Shown here one piece after another: positions 1 to 6,533 of a DNA stretch of 6,533 bases (positions are counted from its first letter, which is position 1; each line of letters begins with the position of its first letter). The DNA is from JALTID01 sp027004335 [NCBI: bacterium] (lineage in GTDB: Bacteria > JALSQH01), in NCBI GenBank assembly GCA_027004335.1, contig JALTID010000234.1, forward strand, positions 1 through 6,533. Reading direction: 5' to 3'. Under the pieces are notes generated by a model. The model made no database searches. It saw only the letters and a program-made list of their open reading frames with translations, and was not told the DNA's origin. The position numbers and the translations under genes are program-made.

Positions 1-133
1 TCATCTCACAATCTGATACATATCTCGGGGCTATTTTAATTCTGTAATACTTATTAGGGGAACTTAAAACCTCTTCCCTTTTCTTCTCCTCCATAATTCT
101 GTTTATCAAAACTCCACCATGCGGTTCATTCAC
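1..133 (-). CDS. sat: ATP sulfurylase (sulfate adenylyltransferase), N-terminal part, cut by left window edge
   Basis: ATP sulfurylase makes adenosine 5'-phosphosulfate (APS) and pyrophosphate from sulfate and ATP in the cytoplasm. Only the first 44 codons are visible. They read MNEPHGGVLINRI at the N-terminus, matching the PHGG-x-L-x-NR opening of the bacterial/archaeal Sat family, and end in a YVSDCEM stretch that fits the family's 'sDlEMIa-GaFSPLtGF' region. The start is GTG at 133, chosen because it keeps the conserved PHGG motif and has AAGGAGG six bases upstream, inside the end of cysC. An internal ATG at codon 14 would remove the motif. The gene lies 1 bp after the cysC stop, so it is probably translationally coupled to it. 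Catalytic HxxH motifs lie outside the window, so an assimilatory or dissimilatory role cannot be judged. The family call rests on a short but characteristic segment. Confidence 0.85.
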   Translation of the reverse strand, partial: MNEPHGGVLINRIMEEKKREEVLSSPNKYYRIKIAPRYVSDCEM

Positions 134-134
134 T

Positions 135-740
135 TTAAGCCTCCTTTATATAACCTTTTTCAACAAGATGCCCTATTATTTTATCCACACTTTCTTCAAT
201 ACTCAACTTATCGGTTTCTATGACAAGCTCTGGATTTTCAGGTTCTTCATAAGGATCATCTATACCGGTAAAATGCTTTATCTCTCCCGCCCTTGCTTTT
301 TTATAAAGACCTTTGGGATCCCTTTCCTCACACACCTCAAGAGGAGCTTTGACAAAAATTTCTATGAACTCTCCCTCTTCTAATAAGCTCCTTGCAAAAT
401 TTCTATCCTTTCTGTATGGTGAAATAAAAGCAGTTATCGCAACAAGTCCCGCATCTACAAAGAGTTTCACCACCTCACTGATCCTTCTTATATTTTCCTC
501 CCTATCCTCTGCTGTAAATCCAAGATCCTTATTAAGACCCTTCCTTACATTATCACCATCAAGAAGATAGGTATGAACCCTGTACTTTTTATTCAAAGTG
601 TACTCCACCTCATTGGCAAGGGTGGATTTACCACTCCCTGAAAGCCCTGTAAACCAGAGAGCAAAAGGTTCATGTCCCTTTATTGCACTTCTGTCAGCTT
701 TTGTCAGCTTATGTTTGTGCTCATAGATATGCTCTGTCAC
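135..740 (-). CDS. cysC: Adenylyl-sulfate (APS) kinase
   Basis: CysC phosphorylates APS at the 3' hydroxyl with ATP to give PAPS, the donor for sulfotransferases and for PAPS reductase. At 201 aa it has the normal length of stand-alone bacterial CysC. Visible motifs are the Walker A loop GLSGSGKS (residues 32-39), [15 protein letters not shown] (61-75) with both aspartates, the arginine and the phenylalanine, DREENIRR (79-86), the FISPYR segment with S107 at the position of the phosphorylatable serine, and the mobile lid [18 protein letters not shown] (148-165). It starts at GTG (740), overlaps the upstream stop by 4 bp (GTGA) and has AAAGGAGG eight bases upstream. With sat directly downstream the pair forms a complete sulfate-to-PAPS module. 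All key residues are intact, so it is very likely active. Confidence 0.96.
140..146 (-). promoter_or_regulatory. Shine-Dalgarno site deciding the GTG start of sat
   Basis: On the minus strand the motif AAGGAGG lies six bases before the GTG at 133 and within the last codons of cysC. It supports GTG rather than the internal ATG at 94 as the sat start, and fits translational coupling of cysC and sat. Confidence 0.8.
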
Positions 741-1462
741 CGCAAAAACCTCCTTTTTACATAACCTACAATTTTATCCGTTGCCTCGCCTATATTCATT
801 TTTCTCACATCTACCATAATTTCAGGATCAACAGGTTCTTCATAAGGGTCAGAAATTCCAGTGAAGTTTTTTATCTCTCCTCTCCTTGCCCTCTCATAAA
901 GTCCCTCTCTGTCTCTTTTCTCACATGTTTCCACATCACATTTAAGATAAACCTCAACAAAATTTTTACAGAGACCTCTGGCAAAACTCCTCATTTCTTC
1001 ATATGGAGAGACAAAACTTGCGACAACACATATTCCATTCCTCTCAAGGATACTGGCGAGATGTGCTACTCTTTCATTATGAACAATCCTATCCTCCTGT
1101 GAAAAGCCCGTCTTAGGAAAGAGTTTTCTTATATCTCTTCCATCAAGTCTTTCAACTCTGAACCCCACTTTCTTTAATCTCTCAGCCACCTCATCACCAA
1201 TGGTGGTCTTACCTGAGAGGGGAAGACCCGTTATCCATATTACAAAAGGCTCAATTTCCTCTTTCCCGAACCTGATCTTATTCCACACCCTTTCATGGAT
1301 AAAATACACAATTATCTTGGCAATAAACTCAAAACCTCCGGCGATAGAGGCAAGCTTTAAATTGTGAAAAACCAGGTAAACAATGAGTATGGTAGTTAAT
1401 GTTGCAAGGATTCTCCAGGAAAAAGCTTTTACAAGGGAGCGCTTTTTTGTTTCAACAATCAT
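737..1462 (-). CDS. DUF2061 membrane domain fused to APS-kinase-like domain
   Basis: This 241-aa protein has two parts. Residues 14-66 form a DUF2061-type membrane domain: FSWRILAT, two hydrophobic segments (about 17-33 and 38-56), then a [14 protein letters not shown] signature. Residues 70-241 are an APS-kinase fold with Walker [10 protein letters not shown] (79-87), SPY (152-154) and the lid [19 protein letters not shown] (191-209), clearly paralogous to the downstream cysC. It departs from canonical Cys[16 protein letters not shown] is replaced by a one-residue-shorter [14 protein letters not shown] (107-120), so R109 sits where the second aspartate should be, and DREENIRR becomes DRIVHNERV with one extra residue. 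It is probably a membrane-anchored nucleotide kinase facing the cytoplasm. Whether it acts on APS or another nucleotide, or is regulatory, cannot be told. ATG start, only a weak GAGAG upstream; probably first gene of the sulfate operon. Confidence 0.88.
749..756 (-). promoter_or_regulatory. Shine-Dalgarno site of cysC
   Basis: AAAGGAGG on the minus strand lies eight bases before the GTG at 740, inside the last codons of the upstream gene. It supports the GTG start and the GTGA stop/start overlap. Confidence 0.75.
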
Positions 1463-1489
1463 TGATAAATTCTCTCAAAAAAGCATAAT
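1462..1489 (+). promoter_or_regulatory. Candidate sigma70-type promoter for the ispD-like gene
   Basis: TTGATA (1462-1467) and CATAAT (1484-1489) are spaced by 16 bases. The predicted start near 1496 leaves about 19 bases of leader containing AAAGAG (1501-1506), a weak Shine-Dalgarno site eight bases before the ATG. The position, in a 52-bp gap between divergent genes, suits a real promoter. This is by eye only. Confidence 0.42.
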
Positions 1490-1508
1490 TAAACATAAAC
1501 AAAGAGTT

Positions 1509-1536
1509 ATTATAATGGAAGAGAAAAACTTTGCAA
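1509..1536 (-). promoter_or_regulatory. Candidate sigma70-type promoter for the sulfate-activation operon
   Basis: On the minus strand TTGCAA (1536-1531) and TATAAT (1514-1509) are separated by 16 bases. Transcription would start near 1503, giving a leader of about 41 bases before the ATG at 1462. The -10 is perfect but the -35 matches the consensus at only 4 of 6 positions and lies inside the ispD coding start. AT-rich sequence yields such matches by chance, so confidence is modest. Confidence 0.35.
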
Positions 1537-2210
1537 TTATTGTAGCAGGGGGTAAAGGTGAAAGATTGGGAGGAAAGATTCCGAAGCAGTTTCAGTATCT
1601 CAGGGGCAAAACTGTGATCGAACACACAATAGATCATTTTGAAAAGTGTGAACTAATAGATGAAATCGTGGTGGTGATCAATCCCATATTTATTGAAACA
1701 ATGTATGATATAAGAAAAAATAATAGATGGAAAAAAGTTACAAAAATTGTTTCCGGGGGAGAGACTCGCCAGGAAAGTGTAAAAAATGGACTCGTTTCAA
1801 TCAGTGAAAATTCGGGTAAGGTGCTGATCCACGACGGTGTCAGGCCACTAATCTCGGCAGACCTTATCAGGAAGCTCATAGAAAAACTCTCATCAGAAAA
1901 AGCGGTTATCCCGATAATTTTTCCCAGAGATTCTATGGTAAAAATTGATAATTCTACCGTGGAAGAATTTGTTAAAAGAGACAGTTTCGCTCAGATCCAG
2001 ACACCCCAGGGATTTAATCTCAAGGTGATTAAAAAAGCACATGACTTAGCATGGAAAGAGGGGAGGAGAGATTTTACTGATGATTCTTCTATGATAACTC
2101 ACTATAATTTAGGCAGGATCAGCGTAGTTGAAGGAGATTACTATAACATAAAAATTACCTATCCAGGGGATCTTGAACTGATCAACTGCATAATGGAAGA
2201 TATTGAATAG
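1515..2210 (+). CDS. ispD: IspD-family cytidylyltransferase (2-C-methyl-D-erythritol 4-phosphate cytidylyltransferase)
   Basis: The 231-aa product fits IspD, which joins CTP and methylerythritol 4-phosphate to give CDP-methylerythritol in the MEP isoprenoid pathway. Visible motifs are the nucleotide loop AGGKGERLGGKIPKQF (11-26) with R17 and K24, GGETRQESVKNGL (81-93), HDGVRP (106-111) with metal-binding D107, R155, TPQGF (163-167), TDDSS (188-192) and YNIKIT with K213. These match the E. coli catalytic positions R20, K27, D106, R157 and K213. I chose the ATG at 1515: the open frame extends upstream to 1383, but that stretch overlaps the divergent gene and precedes the conserved N-terminus. 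No other MEP gene is in the window, and rmlA lies next door, so a related sugar-alcohol cytidylyltransferase (TarI-like) is a lesser alternative. It is the only plus-strand gene here. Confidence 0.82.
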   Translation: MEEKNFAIIVAGGKGERLGGKIPKQFQYLRGKTVIEHTIDHFEKCELIDEIVVVINPIFIETMYDIRKNNRWKKVTKIVSGGETRQESVKNGLVSISENSGKVLIHDGVRPLISADLIRKLIEKLSSEKAVIPIIFPRDSMVKIDNSTVEEFVKRDSFAQIQTPQGFNLKVIKKAHDLAWKEGRRDFTDDSSMITHYNLGRISVVEGDYYNIKITYPGDLELINCIMEDIE

Positions 2211-2215
2211 GAGTC

Positions 2216-3097
2216 TTAAAATCTACCTTCTTCCTCTTTCACCACCCTGAGAAGATACTCACCATAAGTGCTCTTTCTCAGTTCTTCTGCTAAGTTATCC
2301 AGCTGTTCAAGGGTAATATAACCCATCCTGTATGCCACCTCTTCTACACAGCCAATTTTAAAAGCCTGTCTATCCTCAATTGCTCTTACAAAAGTAGAAG
2401 ATTCTATAAATGCCTCATGGGTCCCGGCATCAAACCAGGCAAAGCCCCTGCCCAGAATTTTTACTTTGAGTCTACCTTCCTTAAGATAGAGTTGATTAAC
2501 ACTTGTTATCTCCAGTTCCCCTCTATCAGATGGAGTTATATTTCTGGCCTTTTCCGATGCACCTCTGTCGTAGATATAAAGTCCAACAACAGCAATATTG
2601 GATTTTGGCTTACTGGGTTTTTCCTCAATAGAGAGCACATTATAATCTTTATCAAATTCAACTATTCCGAATCTCTCAGGATCCTTCACATAATAGCCAA
2701 AAACCGTTGCACCCTCGTTTTCCTCCACGGCAGATTTTAGAATAACCGGCAAATCATGACCGTAGAAAATATTATCTCCCAGTATGAGGGCCACCGAATC
2801 ATCACCAACAAAATTTTCTCCAATAATAAGGGCTTCAGCAATACCCCTGGGAGCTTCCTGGACCGCATACTCTATTCTTAAACCAAGTTTTTCACCACTG
2901 CCAAAAAGGGCGGAAAAGTGATCTATGTCCTTTGGTGAGGAAATAATCAGAATATCCTTGATCCCCATAAACATCAGGGTAGTCATGGGATAATAGATCA
3001 TCGGCTTATCATAGATGGGAAGAAGATGTTTGTTTATTATTTTTGTAACAGGATAAAGCCTCGTGCCACTTCCACCAGCGAGAAGAATACCTTTCAT
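2216..3097 (-). CDS. rmlA: Glucose-1-phosphate thymidylyltransferase (dTDP-glucose synthase)
   Basis: RmlA/RfbA makes dTDP-glucose from dTTP and glucose 1-phosphate, the first step to dTDP-rhamnose and other deoxysugars of surface polysaccharides. The 293-aa length is normal for the family. Visible are the N-terminal signature [20 protein letters not shown] (8-27), YDKPMIYYP (29-37), LGDNIFYG (106-113) with metal-ligand D108, EEKP (158-161), [11 protein letters not shown] (167-177), ELEITSVN (194-201) and [10 protein letters not shown] (219-228), which includes the second metal-binding aspartate. The start is the ATG at 3097, five bases after GGAGG; an in-frame ATG at 3142 would add 15 residues before the conserved MKGILLAGG. 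rmlB, rmlC and rmlD are absent from the window. Its stop lies 5 bp from the converging ispD stop. It follows the TSUP gene by 55 bp and probably has its own promoter. Confidence 0.95.
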
Positions 3098-3102
3098 ATC
3101 TC

Positions 3103-3107
3103 CCTCC
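3103..3107 (-). promoter_or_regulatory. Shine-Dalgarno site deciding the rmlA start
   Basis: GGAGG on the minus strand lies five bases before the ATG at 3097. The upstream in-frame ATG at 3142 has no such site and sits within the promoter region, so the shorter start is preferred. Confidence 0.8.
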
Positions 3108-3122
3108 AGAAATTTTTTATAA

Positions 3123-3131
3123 ATTATAACA
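3123..3131 (-). promoter_or_regulatory. Extended -10 promoter for rmlA
   Basis: The minus strand carries TGTTATAAT, a perfect TGnTATAAT extended -10. No good -35 lies 16-18 bases upstream, which is usual for extended -10 promoters. Transcription would start near 3116, about 19 bases before the ATG, leaving room for the GGAGG site. It lies in the 55-bp gap after the TSUP gene, so rmlA may be transcribed apart from the upstream transporter genes. Confidence 0.5.
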
Positions 3132-3152
3132 GAAAAAATCAAAGGGAAATAG

Positions 3153-3892: not shown

Positions 3893-5257
3893 CTAAAATT
3901 TAGGTTTCTGTATGAGGCCAAATAATTTCAGGAGTGCGACAAAGAAGAAGAAGAAACCAAAATATATTAAAGTAACTTCAATTGCAGAAAGCTTCCAGGA
4001 AAAAGGAGCAAGATTAACAACAGTTGTAAGAACAAAAATTATGGGTACAGCGAAAATATTCATGAATCCAATCTCTTTTACAACAGGGGTCTTAAACTCC
4101 GGATCAACAATCCTCAGCAGGAGAATCCCAGTAGACACAGTACCTGTAACAGTCCCGAAAATTGCAGCCATTCTCTCAATGTTAAAGGAGTGGAGCCTCC
4201 TTCCAAAATAAAGCGTTATCCAGAGAGTAACAAGTGCTCCAAGAGTTGCGATTATGAGGATAGGCCCGATATATTTACCAATAATTGCCAATTGAATTGC
4301 CGCACCTGTAGCCACGATCAGATAATCTACAGAAAATCCGGTGATTCTCCTTTGAAGAGGAACACTTATAAGATAATCAACTTTAAAAACCTTGAGTAGC
4401 CATTGAATCCCCATAGCTATAACCATGCCAAAGAGGAAGAAAAATCCCCAGGTTATTTTCCCCATATTACCACCGATCAACCCTGCAAGCCACCATGTAA
4501 AGTAGTAAGTTATTCCATATGCAATACCTATCATGGCAAACTGAAAGGCAAGAGATTCAATATTGGCAGGATGAGTGGTTTGTCTTATAGTTATATCTTC
4601 CTCATGGCCAGGGGGATAGTACCCTTTAGCAAACTCTTCGGGTAATTCTTCCGCGCCAGTTGCAGTGAGTTTCTTTTTAATTCCCCAATTAACAAGAGGA
4701 ATACCAACGACAATTGCAACTAAAAAACCAAGAATTGCAAAGGTTATACCTACCATAGCCGCATCCTGAAATCCCATCTTCTCCCATACCCTCCCGAAGG
4801 AGAGAGCCTGTCCAGGACCTTCTTCAAAGCCCAGAGGAAGGAGAAAACCAAAGGCTTTATGTATGGTAGAACCAAAGAATATATAGATGGCAACCACCAA
4901 TCCCCCTATAAACGCCTGTAATGAAAAACTCACACCTTCCACTGTACCCATCCAGAGGGAACCTAAAAAAGAGTCCCTGCTTTCATGGGCAGAGAGTTTT
5001 TCTTCAGGGGGGGTAGGAGTTAGTCCTATGGAAACAAAAGAAAGATTGAAAAAATGGTAGGCAAATGTCTCAAAAATCTTTGTATCCCACTTTAACCAGT
5101 TTACAATAGTAAAAGCAATGATCCCCCCAAGAAGTGAACTTGGAAAGAGATACCTCTGTATGACTCCTACCTTTGCTCTGATGAGAAATCCCACCAGGAG
5201 CATCGCAGACAGAAAGCTGAAAATTAGCATAAAATTGAAGGGGAATATAGGTTCCAT
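3893..5257 (-). CDS. ESS-family (GltS-like) sodium:glutamate-type symporter
   Basis: This 454-aa polytopic protein resembles the sodium/glutamate symporter GltS, which takes up glutamate with Na+. Matching signatures are FPSSLLGGIIAF (38-49), FVSIGL (74-79), a first pore-like glycine segment FEEGPGQALSFGRVWEKMGF (144-163), where E. coli GltS has GGHGTGAA, and a second GTVTGTVSTGILLLRIVDPE (368-387). About ten or more hydrophobic segments are visible. It is some 50 residues longer than E. coli GltS (401 aa), mainly through a charged central loop at about 194-232 rich in E, K, P and H, probably cytoplasmic. The ATG at 5257 has GGGAGGAG just upstream, 14 bp from the preceding stop, so it is co-transcribed with the PLP enzyme. 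The different pore motif means glutamate is not assured; another amino-acid-like or dicarboxylate anion is possible. gltS is not assigned for that reason. Confidence 0.83.
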   Translation of the reverse strand: MEPIFPFNFMLIFSFLSAMLLVGFLIRAKVGVIQRYLFPSSLLGGIIAFTIVNWLKWDTKIFETFAYHFFNLSFVSIGLTPTPPEEKLSAHESRDSFLGSLWMGTVEGVSFSLQAFIGGLVVAIYIFFGSTIHKAFGFLLPLGFEEGPGQALSFGRVWEKMGFQDAAMVGITFAILGFLVAIVVGIPLVNWGIKKKLTATGAEELPEEFAKGYYPPGHEEDITIRQTTHPANIESLAFQFAMIGIAYGITYYFTWWLAGLIGGNMGKITWGFFFLFGMVIAMGIQWLLKVFKVDYLISVPLQRRITGFSVDYLIVATGAAIQLAIIGKYIGPILIIATLGALVTLWITLYFGRRLHSFNIERMAAIFGTVTGTVSTGILLLRIVDPEFKTPVVKEIGFMNIFAVPIIFVLTTVVNLAPFSWKLSAIEVTLIYFGFFFFFVALLKLFGLIQKPKF

Positions 5258-5271
5258 AACTCCTCCCTATT

Positions 5272-6533
5272 TTATCTGAACATGTAATTTGAAAACTCAA
5301 CTAACAGCGTTTCTCTCATCTCAGGGGGCAATATGTTCATAACTTCATTTACAGGTGCGAATCTCTCGGGGATCTTACCATCCTCCATTCCTACAAGTTT
5401 CATCAGATTTTCAATTACCTCAGGGGTAAACTCAAGAGATTCTCCACCGGCAAAAAGTCCCCCCGCCTTCTCAAGAAGGGTTCCTGATGGAAGTTTCTTT
5501 GCATCCTCAATGGCAACTTTAAGATCCTTTAGAAATTCATCCATATGAAATACATTGGAGTAATTAATTGAGAGGTGTATACTTTCTTTTATCCCCGCAT
5601 ATGAGAGAACAGGCTGTATATACCAGCCTTTTAGATTCATCTCATCAATTATGTGGAAGATATTCACATTATCTGATGTAAAAGCAACAAGGGTCATTTC
5701 AGGCTCAGCAATCAATCTGAGGTCAGGATGTTTCTTTACAAAATTTACCACTTTTTCCGTAGCTTCCAGTTTTTTCTTCGTAAAATCAAGATAACGCTCG
5801 AGTCCCACATACTGAAGAGTAGCCCAGGCAGCAGCTAACGGTCCTGTACTCTTGGTGCTCTGGATCGTATTATTGATCATGGTGTAGCCAGTCCAGCTGG
5901 CACATGCGAAGATCTGATGTTTTCTCAATTCCTTATTTTTGTAAAGTACAACTGAAGCACCTTTTGGGGTGTAGGCGTATTTGTGGAGATCCATGGAGAT
6001 GGATGTAACTCCATCTACAGAAAAATCAAACGGGGGAACATCTCTACCAAGCTTTCTCATTAGAGGAAGTAGAAATCCCCCCATACAGGCATCAGTATGA
6101 AAGAGGATCTCCTTTTCCTTCGCTATGGCAGCCATCTCTTCAATAGGATCAATTATTCCATATGCGTAACTTGGAGCTGAACCAACTATCAGAATCGTGT
6201 TATCCGTTATCGCCTCCCTGAGTTGATTTAGATCCGCTTTTAAATTTTCATCAACCCCTATGGTCTTAACCTTTACACCAAGATAATGACCGGCCTTGTG
6301 AAAAGCTGCATGAGCCGTAACAGGAACCAGGACTTCAGGCTCTTTTATATCAGGCCTTTTTTCTCTCATATAATTTCTTGCTGTTTTAACAGCTAAAATT
6401 ATACTTTCCGTACCACCACTGGTGAAATTTCCAGAAACATTTTCATCTCCGCCAAGATGAGCAGCAGCAAATGAGATTATATCATTTTCCATTTTTAATA
6501 TGCTTGGATAAACTGTAAAATCCAGTGCATTTT
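5272..6533 (-). CDS. PLP-dependent lyase/decarboxylase, sphingosine-1-phosphate lyase-like; 5' end beyond right window edge
   Basis: This is a fold-type I, group II PLP enzyme. The frame stays open to the window edge: 13 more codons (NALDFTVYPSILK) precede the ATG at 6492 and match the family's 'NPLHPDVFPGLRKME' region, so that ATG is internal and roughly 50-100 residues are probably missing. Counting from that ATG: TSGGTES (24-30) holds the PLP phosphate, H61 in VTAHAAFHKA stacks on the ring, D134 in HTDACMGGF contacts the pyridine nitrogen, and K171 in SMDLHKYAYTPKG is the Schiff-base lysine. VTAHAAFHKAGHY, GIIDPIEE, HTDACMGGF and PKGASVVLYKNKELR are closer to S1P lyase than to ordinary glutamate decarboxylase. 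The YAS-T--GSRPG segment of S1P lyases is replaced by TMINNTIQSTKSTG (204-217), implying a different substrate. It heads the visible operon with the ESS and TSUP carriers. Substrate unknown; glutamate, aspartate or a phospho- or sulfo-amine are all possible. Confidence 0.87.
   Translation of the reverse strand, partial: NALDFTVYPSILKMENDIISFAAAHLGGDENVSGNFTSGGTESIILAVKTARNYMREKRPDIKEPEVLVPVTAHAAFHKAGHYLGVKVKTIGVDENLKADLNQLREAITDNTILIVGSAPSYAYGIIDPIEEMAAIAKEKEILFHTDACMGGFLLPLMRKLGRDVPPFDFSVDGVTSISMDLHKYAYTPKGASVVLYKNKELRKHQIFACASWTGYTMINNTIQSTKSTGPLAAAWATLQYVGLERYLDFTKKKLEATEKVVNFVKKHPDLRLIAEPEMTLVAFTSDNVNIFHIIDEMNLKGWYIQPVLSYAGIKESIHLSINYSNVFHMDEFLKDLKVAIEDAKKLPSGTLLEKAGGLFAGGESLEFTPEVIENLMKLVGMEDGKIPERFAPVNEVMNILPPEMRETLLVEFSNYMFR

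What the first reader, a model, noticed from the sequence alone, without database searches (positions are those of the whole stretch)
737..1462. Membrane-tethered APS-kinase paralogue with an altered DGDN motif beside a canonical cysC
Two APS-kinase domains are encoded back to back. The first is fused to a DUF2061 two-helix membrane domain. Canonical CysC here has D61 and D63 in DGDN; the fusion has DGRD, placing R109 at the second aspartate, deletes one residue from the following loop and inserts one before the NxxR segment, while keeping Walker A, SPY and the lid. Retention of ATP and lid features with a changed substrate/catalytic loop suggests a changed substrate, a regulatory subunit, or a membrane-localised PAPS source next to a transporter or sulfotransferase. 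The domain pairing occurs in databases to my recollection; its function is, as far as I know, unassigned.
Basis: partly seen in the sequence, partly recalled or inferred. Interest (0 to 1): 0.62.

Follow-up and report, generated by a model that had tools for sequence, protein, structure and literature searches.

The report
Membrane-anchored pseudo-APS-kinase paired with CysC
This gene encodes a membrane-anchored look-alike of the enzyme that makes activated sulfate; it has lost the catalytic residue but kept the substrate pockets and travels with a working copy of the enzyme, so it probably holds, tunes or senses that enzyme at the membrane rather than doing the chemistry.

Summary
Window 737-1462(-) encodes DUF2061 fused to an APS-kinase domain, next to a canonical cysC; ATP sulfurylase (sat) follows. 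R109 replaces the second Asp of DGDN, the proposed catalytic base. Two details are wrong: there is no insertion before NxxR, and the lid is not kept, since its catalytic Lys is Glu here. The shortened loop is shared with fusions that keep DGD.

Of 59 distinct fusions, 49 have a degenerate DGD motif and 10 keep it. Of the 48 degenerate ones tabulated, all keep the Walker A Lys and APS-binding Arg483. None of 178 readable unfused kinases lacks the second Asp. All 49 genomes with a degenerate fusion carry a second APS kinase with DGD and lid Lys (one split by frame). The 9 genomes and 1 plasmid with an intact fusion show no other full-length kinase. Independent events are few, so this link is suggestive, not proven.

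Best reading: a membrane-anchored pseudokinase subunit that pairs with active CysC, placing or tuning PAPS synthesis for surface-glycan sulfation. Pairing and ligand binding are inferred. Pseudo-APS-kinase domains are known (Penicillium ATP sulfurylase); this membrane-anchored bacterial form is a new variant.

The parts
737..1462 (-). DUF2061-pseudo-APS-kinase fusion, 241 aa
1280..1435 (-). DUF2061 match; predicted membrane hairpin (helices at residues 6-31 and 36-62)
   Evidence: PF09834 match of 64.8 bits at these bases; helices in the model; hydropathy
809..1249 (-). APS-kinase domain with R109 in place of the catalytic Asp and Glu in place of the lid Lys
   Evidence: PF01583 match at these bases; motif readout
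135..740 (-). canonical cysC (DGDN, RDPKGLY), the presumed active partner; 4-base overlap with the fusion if the GTG at 740 is its start
1..133 (-). start of sat (ATP sulfurylase), cut by the contig end; a GTG lies one base after the cysC stop
   Evidence: translation; 68% identity over 41 aa to the Sat of genome G001, which matches PF01747 at E=1.8e-100
2216..3142 (-). rmlA, dTDP-sugar synthesis; glycan context, not shown to be co-transcribed
   Evidence: TIGR01207 over cut-off

Best explanation
The fusion is a membrane-anchored pseudo-APS-kinase. Its kinase fold keeps the ATP and APS pockets but lacks the Asp proposed as base for 3'-OH phosphorylation, and in this sub-clade the lid Lys has also become Glu. 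It is encoded with canonical CysC, often by neighbouring genes, and most likely pairs with it through the APS-kinase dimer interface. The pseudo-subunit would hold the active CysC at the inner membrane and, as a nucleotide-binding partner, could tune it, for example by easing APS inhibition in an asymmetric dimer. The PAPS made there would serve sulfotransferases acting on surface glycans. Shown: fusion, residue losses, kept pocket residues, purifying selection, co-occurrence with an intact kinase, glycan-cluster context in several relatives. Inferred: loss of catalysis, heterodimer, ligand binding, membrane location, purpose.
For: Catalytic role: Mtb CysC Asp480 is the proposed base near the APS 3'-OH, its counterpart essential in the mouse enzyme; Lys562 is placed to stabilise the transition state; both contact the APS 2'-OH (PMC4373884, passages).

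Residues: the 48 degenerate fusions tabulated have Walker A Lys 48/48, Arg483 48/48, Arg497 45/48, Phe576 47/48, Phe492 as F or Y 47/48; unfused kinases keep Asp480 in 178 of 178 readable.

Partner: all 49 genomes with a readable degenerate fusion have a second kinase with DGD and lid Lys, 48 whole and 1 (G434) split by frame. The 10 intact fusions (9 genomes, 1 plasmid record) have no other full-length kinase. In 334 genomes of the Omnitrophota sample, 4 of 4 fusions with an intact second kinase are degenerate and 4 of 4 without one keep DGD.

Selection: dN/dS 0.084 for the only fusion pair shown with dS below 1 (L173/L175), against 0.173 for their CysC partners.

Architecture: DUF2061 is fused to APS kinases of two separate lineages, and stands as a separate gene beside the kinase in 57 of 80 fetched loci (the scan used a DUF2061 motif, so this is not an unbiased rate). 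In a search not chosen that way, 9 of 192 genomes have DUF2061 and in 3 of these 9 it is fused to an APS kinase; two of the three are of one family.

Context: cysD-cysN-fusion-cysC-presumed cysQ in clusters with rml, wzm/wzt-like or glycosyltransferase genes.

Precedent for asymmetry: PAPSS1/PAPSS2 heterodimers show slightly diminished APS inhibition (PMC3734648, passages).
Against: No measured interaction, binding or localisation. The co-occurrence rests on few independent events: parsimony gives 2 losses of the motif and 2 changes of the second kinase, with 1-2 independent pairs, too few for a phylogenetic test. Five of the 10 intact cases are the plasmid, whose host chromosome was not searched, or Bacteroidota fusions of the other kinase lineage. 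Unfused kinases also fall inside the fusion lineage (L006, L007; also L189, L213, L219), so the fusion was gained or lost more than once. G001 has fusion and cysC on different contigs and G809 about 134 kb apart. The own genome shows no Sulfotransfer_1 or _3 match, and 7 of 16 degenerate-fusion genomes searched show none. 40 of 48 degenerate fusions keep the lid Lys, so most have lost only one of the two catalytic residues. Some phosphotransferases work without a strong base (recalled).
Confidence: 0.55

Rival explanations
1. Ligand sensor: the pseudokinase binds APS or PAPS at the membrane and controls ATP sulfurylase, a transporter or a glycan enzyme, like the pseudo-APS-kinase domain of Penicillium ATP sulfurylase, without needing CysC as partner.
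For: Ligand-contact residues are kept in nearly all degenerate fusions. Penicillium ATP sulfurylase is among the structural matches (1m8p, 1i2d), and its inactive APS-kinase-like domain confers allosteric control by PAPS (PMC3734648 and PMC13213808, passages).
Against: Does not by itself explain why DUF2061 is also found fused to or beside kinases that look active, nor the second kinase in every genome.
Confidence: 0.2
2. Neofunctionalised kinase: it phosphorylates another 3'-OH or a different nucleotide, with Lys/Arg/His or the neighbouring Asp/Glu taking over catalysis.
For: The Walker A Lys and, in 40 of 48, the lid Lys are kept. Many members have an acidic residue one step on (DGRD, DSKD, DSKE). 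In the window lineage the two catalytic positions are swapped in charge (R109 and Glu).
Against: The APS contacts are kept rather than changed. The shifted acid is absent in G001 (N), L043 (S) and L056 (T). In three of the four degenerate Omnitrophota fusions the first Asp is lost. No consistent new pathway gene was seen beside it in the loci annotated.
Confidence: 0.15
3. Low-rate but ordinary APS kinase giving a membrane-local PAPS pool.
For: Related fusions with DGD are the only full-length kinase found in their genomes, so the fold was probably an active kinase ancestrally.
Against: Asp480 is changed in 47 of 48 degenerate fusions and Asp478 in the other; the mouse counterpart of Asp480 is essential (PMC4373884, passages).
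Confidence: 0.07
4. Decaying redundant gene on its way to loss.
For: The motif is lost only where a second kinase exists.
Against: Purifying selection; pocket residues and full-length frame kept in samples from Campylobacterota, Omnitrophota, the phylum of G209 (Melioribacteraceae) and the window's phylum.
Confidence: 0.03

Closest known systems
CysC / APS kinase (PF01583, TIGR00455)
   Same: Fold, Walker A and APS-pocket residues; 176.9 bits against a TIGR00455 cut-off of 138.7
   Different: Catalytic Asp replaced by Arg, lid Lys by Glu, N-terminal membrane hairpin
C-terminal APS-kinase-like domain of Penicillium chrysogenum ATP sulfurylase (1i2d, 1m8p)
   Same: APS-kinase fold without APS kinase activity in sulfate activation; structural match
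   Different: Fused to the sulfurylase, which forms a homohexamer (PMC3728988, passage); no membrane anchor that I recall
Human PAPSS1/PAPSS2 heterodimer
   Same: Precedent for an asymmetric APS-kinase dimer with slightly less APS inhibition (PMC3734648, passages)
   Different: Built from two bifunctional PAPS synthases, not from a live and a dead kinase
DUF2061-APS-kinase fusions with intact DGD (Gemmatirosa plasmid, Spirochaetia, Omnitrophota; Roseivirga and other Bacteroidota separately)
   Same: Same two-domain layout; the first three group with the pseudokinases (100/98)
   Different: Keep both Asp and the lid Lys; no other full-length kinase found in the genome or record
CysN-like protein with a vestigial C-terminal CysC-like domain (L033, L255, L257, L258)
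   Same: Another degenerate APS-kinase domain in the same pathway
   Different: Both Asp lost (LGIGN, IGIGS in L258), attached to the GTPase, no membrane hairpin seen

Membership tests
APS kinase family (PF01583) | Profile match over the curated cut-off | tested here: met
   167.3 bits against 21.1
APS kinase, catalytically active | Second Asp of DGDN (catalytic base) | tested here: not met
   R109
APS kinase, catalytically active | Lid Lys of RDxKGLY | tested here: not met
   Glu in RDREGLY
APS kinase, catalytically active | APS phosphorylation | not testable with these tools
   needs an assay
APS kinase, ligand pockets | Walker A Lys and counterparts of Arg483, Phe492, Arg497, Phe576 | tested here: met
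   K85, R112, F120, R125, F200 in alignment A1; clade counts
DUF2061 (PF09834) | Profile match over the cut-off and two membrane helices | tested here: met
   61.7 bits against 23.1; helices 6-31 and 36-62 in the model; insertion in a membrane not shown
Penicillium-type allosteric pseudo-APS-kinase | Inactive APS-kinase fold fused to ATP sulfurylase and binding PAPS | tested here: not met
   not fused to the sulfurylase (sat is a separate gene); PAPS binding not testable; may still work like one
Campylobacter CDP-phosphoramidate kinase (Cj1415-like; recalled) | Neighbouring phosphoramidate pathway genes | tested here: inconclusive
   the nearby IspD-like gene passes the IspD model (TIGR00453 207.6 bits against 181.3); the pathway genes were not searched for by profile

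The most novel reading that the evidence does not exclude
A membrane-anchored pseudo-APS-kinase forms an obligate asymmetric dimer with CysC. In this lineage a genome tends to pair one live and one dead APS-kinase fold: either a dead membrane subunit with live CysC (free, or on a long frame that is presumably CysN), or a live membrane subunit with a dead CysC-like domain on CysN. Dimerisation of the two folds would dock the sulfate-activating complex onto the inner membrane and feed PAPS directly to glycan sulfotransferases.
Probability: 0.35. Interest if true: 0.78.

Novelty: new variant of a known kind. Interest (0 to 1): 0.6.

Why it matters
Bacterial PAPS synthesis is usually thought of as soluble (recalled). 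A conserved membrane-anchored pseudokinase partner, found in 31 of 397 genomes sampled from the phylum of Sulfurimonas, would mean that PAPS supply is placed and tuned at the membrane, and it would give a role to part of DUF2061. The related live fusions, dead fusions and separate DUF2061 genes form a natural series for testing how a pseudoenzyme arises once a second active copy is present. The dead member passes the TIGR00455 APS-kinase model, so automatic annotation would probably call it an active APS kinase.

Tried and rejected
Tandem duplication of cysC: rejected, because fusion and CysC sit in two separated clades.

Loop deletion as a sign of new function: rejected, shared with DGD-type fusions.

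A general charge swap (D to basic, K to E): rejected as a rule. The Glu occurs only in the window, G001 and G014; 40 of 48 keep the lid Lys and the other five have S, Q or R.

One origin of all degenerate fusions: not settled. They form one clade at 84/90 without the extra Omnitrophota rows, but two losses with them; the larger quick tree also gave two changes.

Phosphoramidate pathway reading suggested by the IspD-like neighbour: no support, not fully tested.

Papers on the pairing: none for DUF2061 with APS kinase or APS kinase with pseudoenzyme. Two of three of APS kinase, membrane-anchored and cysC gave 51 papers, of which I saw the 10 listed. APS kinase with Asp136 gave none. Four papers name DUF2061; I read passages of three, which give no function. 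The library holds open-licence papers only.

A model of the fusion-CysC complex was not made; only the fusion monomer was modelled.

Full report
WHAT IS THERE. Window 737-1462(-) encodes 241 residues: DUF2061 at 10-61 and an APS-kinase domain at 72-218. It overlaps canonical cysC (135-740) by 4 bases if the GTG at 740 is the start of cysC. Bases 1-133(-) are the start of sat, matching the Sat of relative G001 (PF01747). On the other side lie an ispD on the opposite strand, rmlA, a TauE-family permease, a membrane-like protein without Pfam match, and a PLP decarboxylase. The window genome is 1.5 Mb in 262 contigs, 80.2% complete; a search of its phylum reached two genomes, itself and G001.

THE ACTIVE SITE. 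Mycobacterium CysC is the reference: Asp478 near Mg, Asp480 the proposed base, Lys562 for the transition state, Arg483 and Arg497 on the phosphosulfate, Phe492 and Phe576 on the adenine; Asp480 and Lys562 both contact the 2'-OH (PMC4373884, passages). In the window protein Asp480 is R109 and Lys562 is Glu; the other contacts are kept. That R109 and the Glu form a salt bridge would be inference.

THE CLADE. Whole-genome searches covered 192 relatives, 397 genomes of the phylum of Sulfurimonas G203, 334 of the phylum of Omnitrophota locus L045 and 345 of the phylum of Melioribacteraceae locus L056. Distinct kinase domains read: 237, of which 58 are fused to DUF2061. Dropped before this count: repeats, and domains spanning under about 130 residues, among them the cut L073 (K at Asp480); the split L046 was counted as fused by hand. 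Of the 58, 48 have a degenerate DGD motif and 10 keep it; G420, read later, is a 49th degenerate one. At Asp480 the 48 have K 37, H 4, R 3, S 3, D 1; the last, L186, has lost Asp478 instead. Walker A Lys and Arg483 are kept in 48 of 48. Of 179 unfused kinases, 178 have a readable residue at Asp480 and all are Asp; two have lost Asp478.

A SECOND KINASE. Each of the 49 genomes with a degenerate fusion has another APS kinase whose motif I read: 48 are whole with DGD and lid Lys; in G434 the adjacent cysC is split by frame. Partners are free CysC or, in G803, G834 and G809, the end of a 596-655-residue frame, presumably CysNC though not profiled. The 10 intact fusions come from 9 genomes and one plasmid record (host chromosome not searched); none has another full-length kinase. 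In G193, G826, G838 and the plasmid the remaining match is a vestigial domain at the end of a CysN-like frame, with LGIGN or IGIGS in place of LDGDN; G192 has a weak match in a 603-residue frame that I did not read; G195 and G197 have only weak matches in 448- and 465-residue frames; G194, G196 and G928 have none. The Omnitrophota sample holds both states: 4 fusions with a second kinase are degenerate, 4 without are intact (Fisher 0.029, not corrected for kinship). On the tree, in the fusion lineage, the table is 20/0/0/5 but needs only 2 losses and has 1-2 independent pairs, so the link is consistent but not proven.

HISTORY AND SELECTION. With the motif columns removed, the degenerate fusions group with DGD-type fusions L033, L042, L045 and with two unfused kinases (100/98), away from their CysC partners. 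Four Bacteroidota fusions (L059, L062, L066, L069) lie in the other kinase clade, so DUF2061 was joined to an APS kinase at least twice. For the only pair shown with dS below 1, dN/dS is 0.084 for the fusion and 0.173 for CysC; other pairs were saturated or nearly so, including window against G001 (the best 25 of 51 fusion pairs were printed).

CONTEXT. In Sulfurimonas-type loci the order is cysD-cysN-fusion-cysC-presumed cysQ, with rml genes, wzm/wzt-like genes or glycosyltransferases around it. With starts taken as the first possible codon, fusion and cysC overlap in the window, L044, L046, L048, L049, L050 and L053 and are adjacent in L035; starts were not verified. Of 63 rows examined for order, 37 had the partner kinase just downstream, 5 upstream and 21 not near on the fetched stretch; the rows include DGD-type fusions, short loci and a few repeats. 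G001 has the two on different contigs, G809 134 kb apart. Sulfotransferase families PF13469 or PF00685 match in 9 of 16 degenerate-fusion genomes searched, 8 of them over a cut-off, against 2 of 14 control genomes; the window's own genome has none. Near the operon, L049 and L048 carry one over the cut-off and L053 one below it.

MEMBRANE. DUF2061 is modelled as two long helices and the kinase as an APS-kinase fold. Positive charges flank the hairpin, which suggests a cytoplasmic kinase; this is inference. DUF2061 occurs in 9 of 192 relatives; in 3 of the 9 it is fused to an APS kinase, two of these in one family. A separate DUF2061 gene sits beside the kinase in 57 of the 80 fetched loci, a set whose scan used a DUF2061 motif.

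READING. The pattern is that of a pseudoenzyme subunit. Known parallels are the inactive, PAPS-responsive APS-kinase-like domain of Penicillium ATP sulfurylase and the PAPSS1/PAPSS2 heterodimer with slightly reduced APS inhibition (PMC3734648, PMC13213808, passages). I favour a membrane anchor and modulator of CysC (0.55) over a stand-alone sensor (0.2), a new kinase (0.15), a slow APS kinase (0.07) or decay (0.03). No paper on the pairing was found in the searches named under Tried and rejected.

Noticed in passing
L263 (G828:C35:15000-22000): An APS-kinase domain with intact motif lies inside an open frame listed as 27,888 residues, about the whole 83,666-base contig, in a genome of the Omnitrophota sample; the 7-kb stretch read has no stop in that frame.
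   Followed up: partly
L033:7009-9066, L255, L257, L258: A CysN-like protein carries a C-terminal CysC-like domain with LGIGN or IGIGS in place of LDGDN, in genomes or records whose DUF2061 fusion keeps DGD.
   Followed up: partly
window 3893-5257(-): 454-residue membrane-like protein with no Pfam or NCBIfam match at E 0.001.
   Followed up: no
window 1383-2210(+) and L036:2747-3454(-): An IspD-like gene and an rmlA-like gene lie near cysC in both genomes of this phylum (those of L036 judged by sequence, not profiled).
   Followed up: partly
window 5272-6531(-): PLP decarboxylase most like MfnA (TIGR03812, below cut-off); a related protein lies in the Gemmatirosa locus at L033:1570-2973.
   Followed up: no
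L186 and L188 (Omnitrophota): L186 lost the first Asp (YGD) and the Arg before the lid motif (YDKKG) but kept the second Asp; L188 lost both Asp (SGS).
   Followed up: partly
L046:5357-6088: DUF2061 and kinase lie in successive frames separated by a stop, perhaps an assembly or sequencing break.
   Followed up: no
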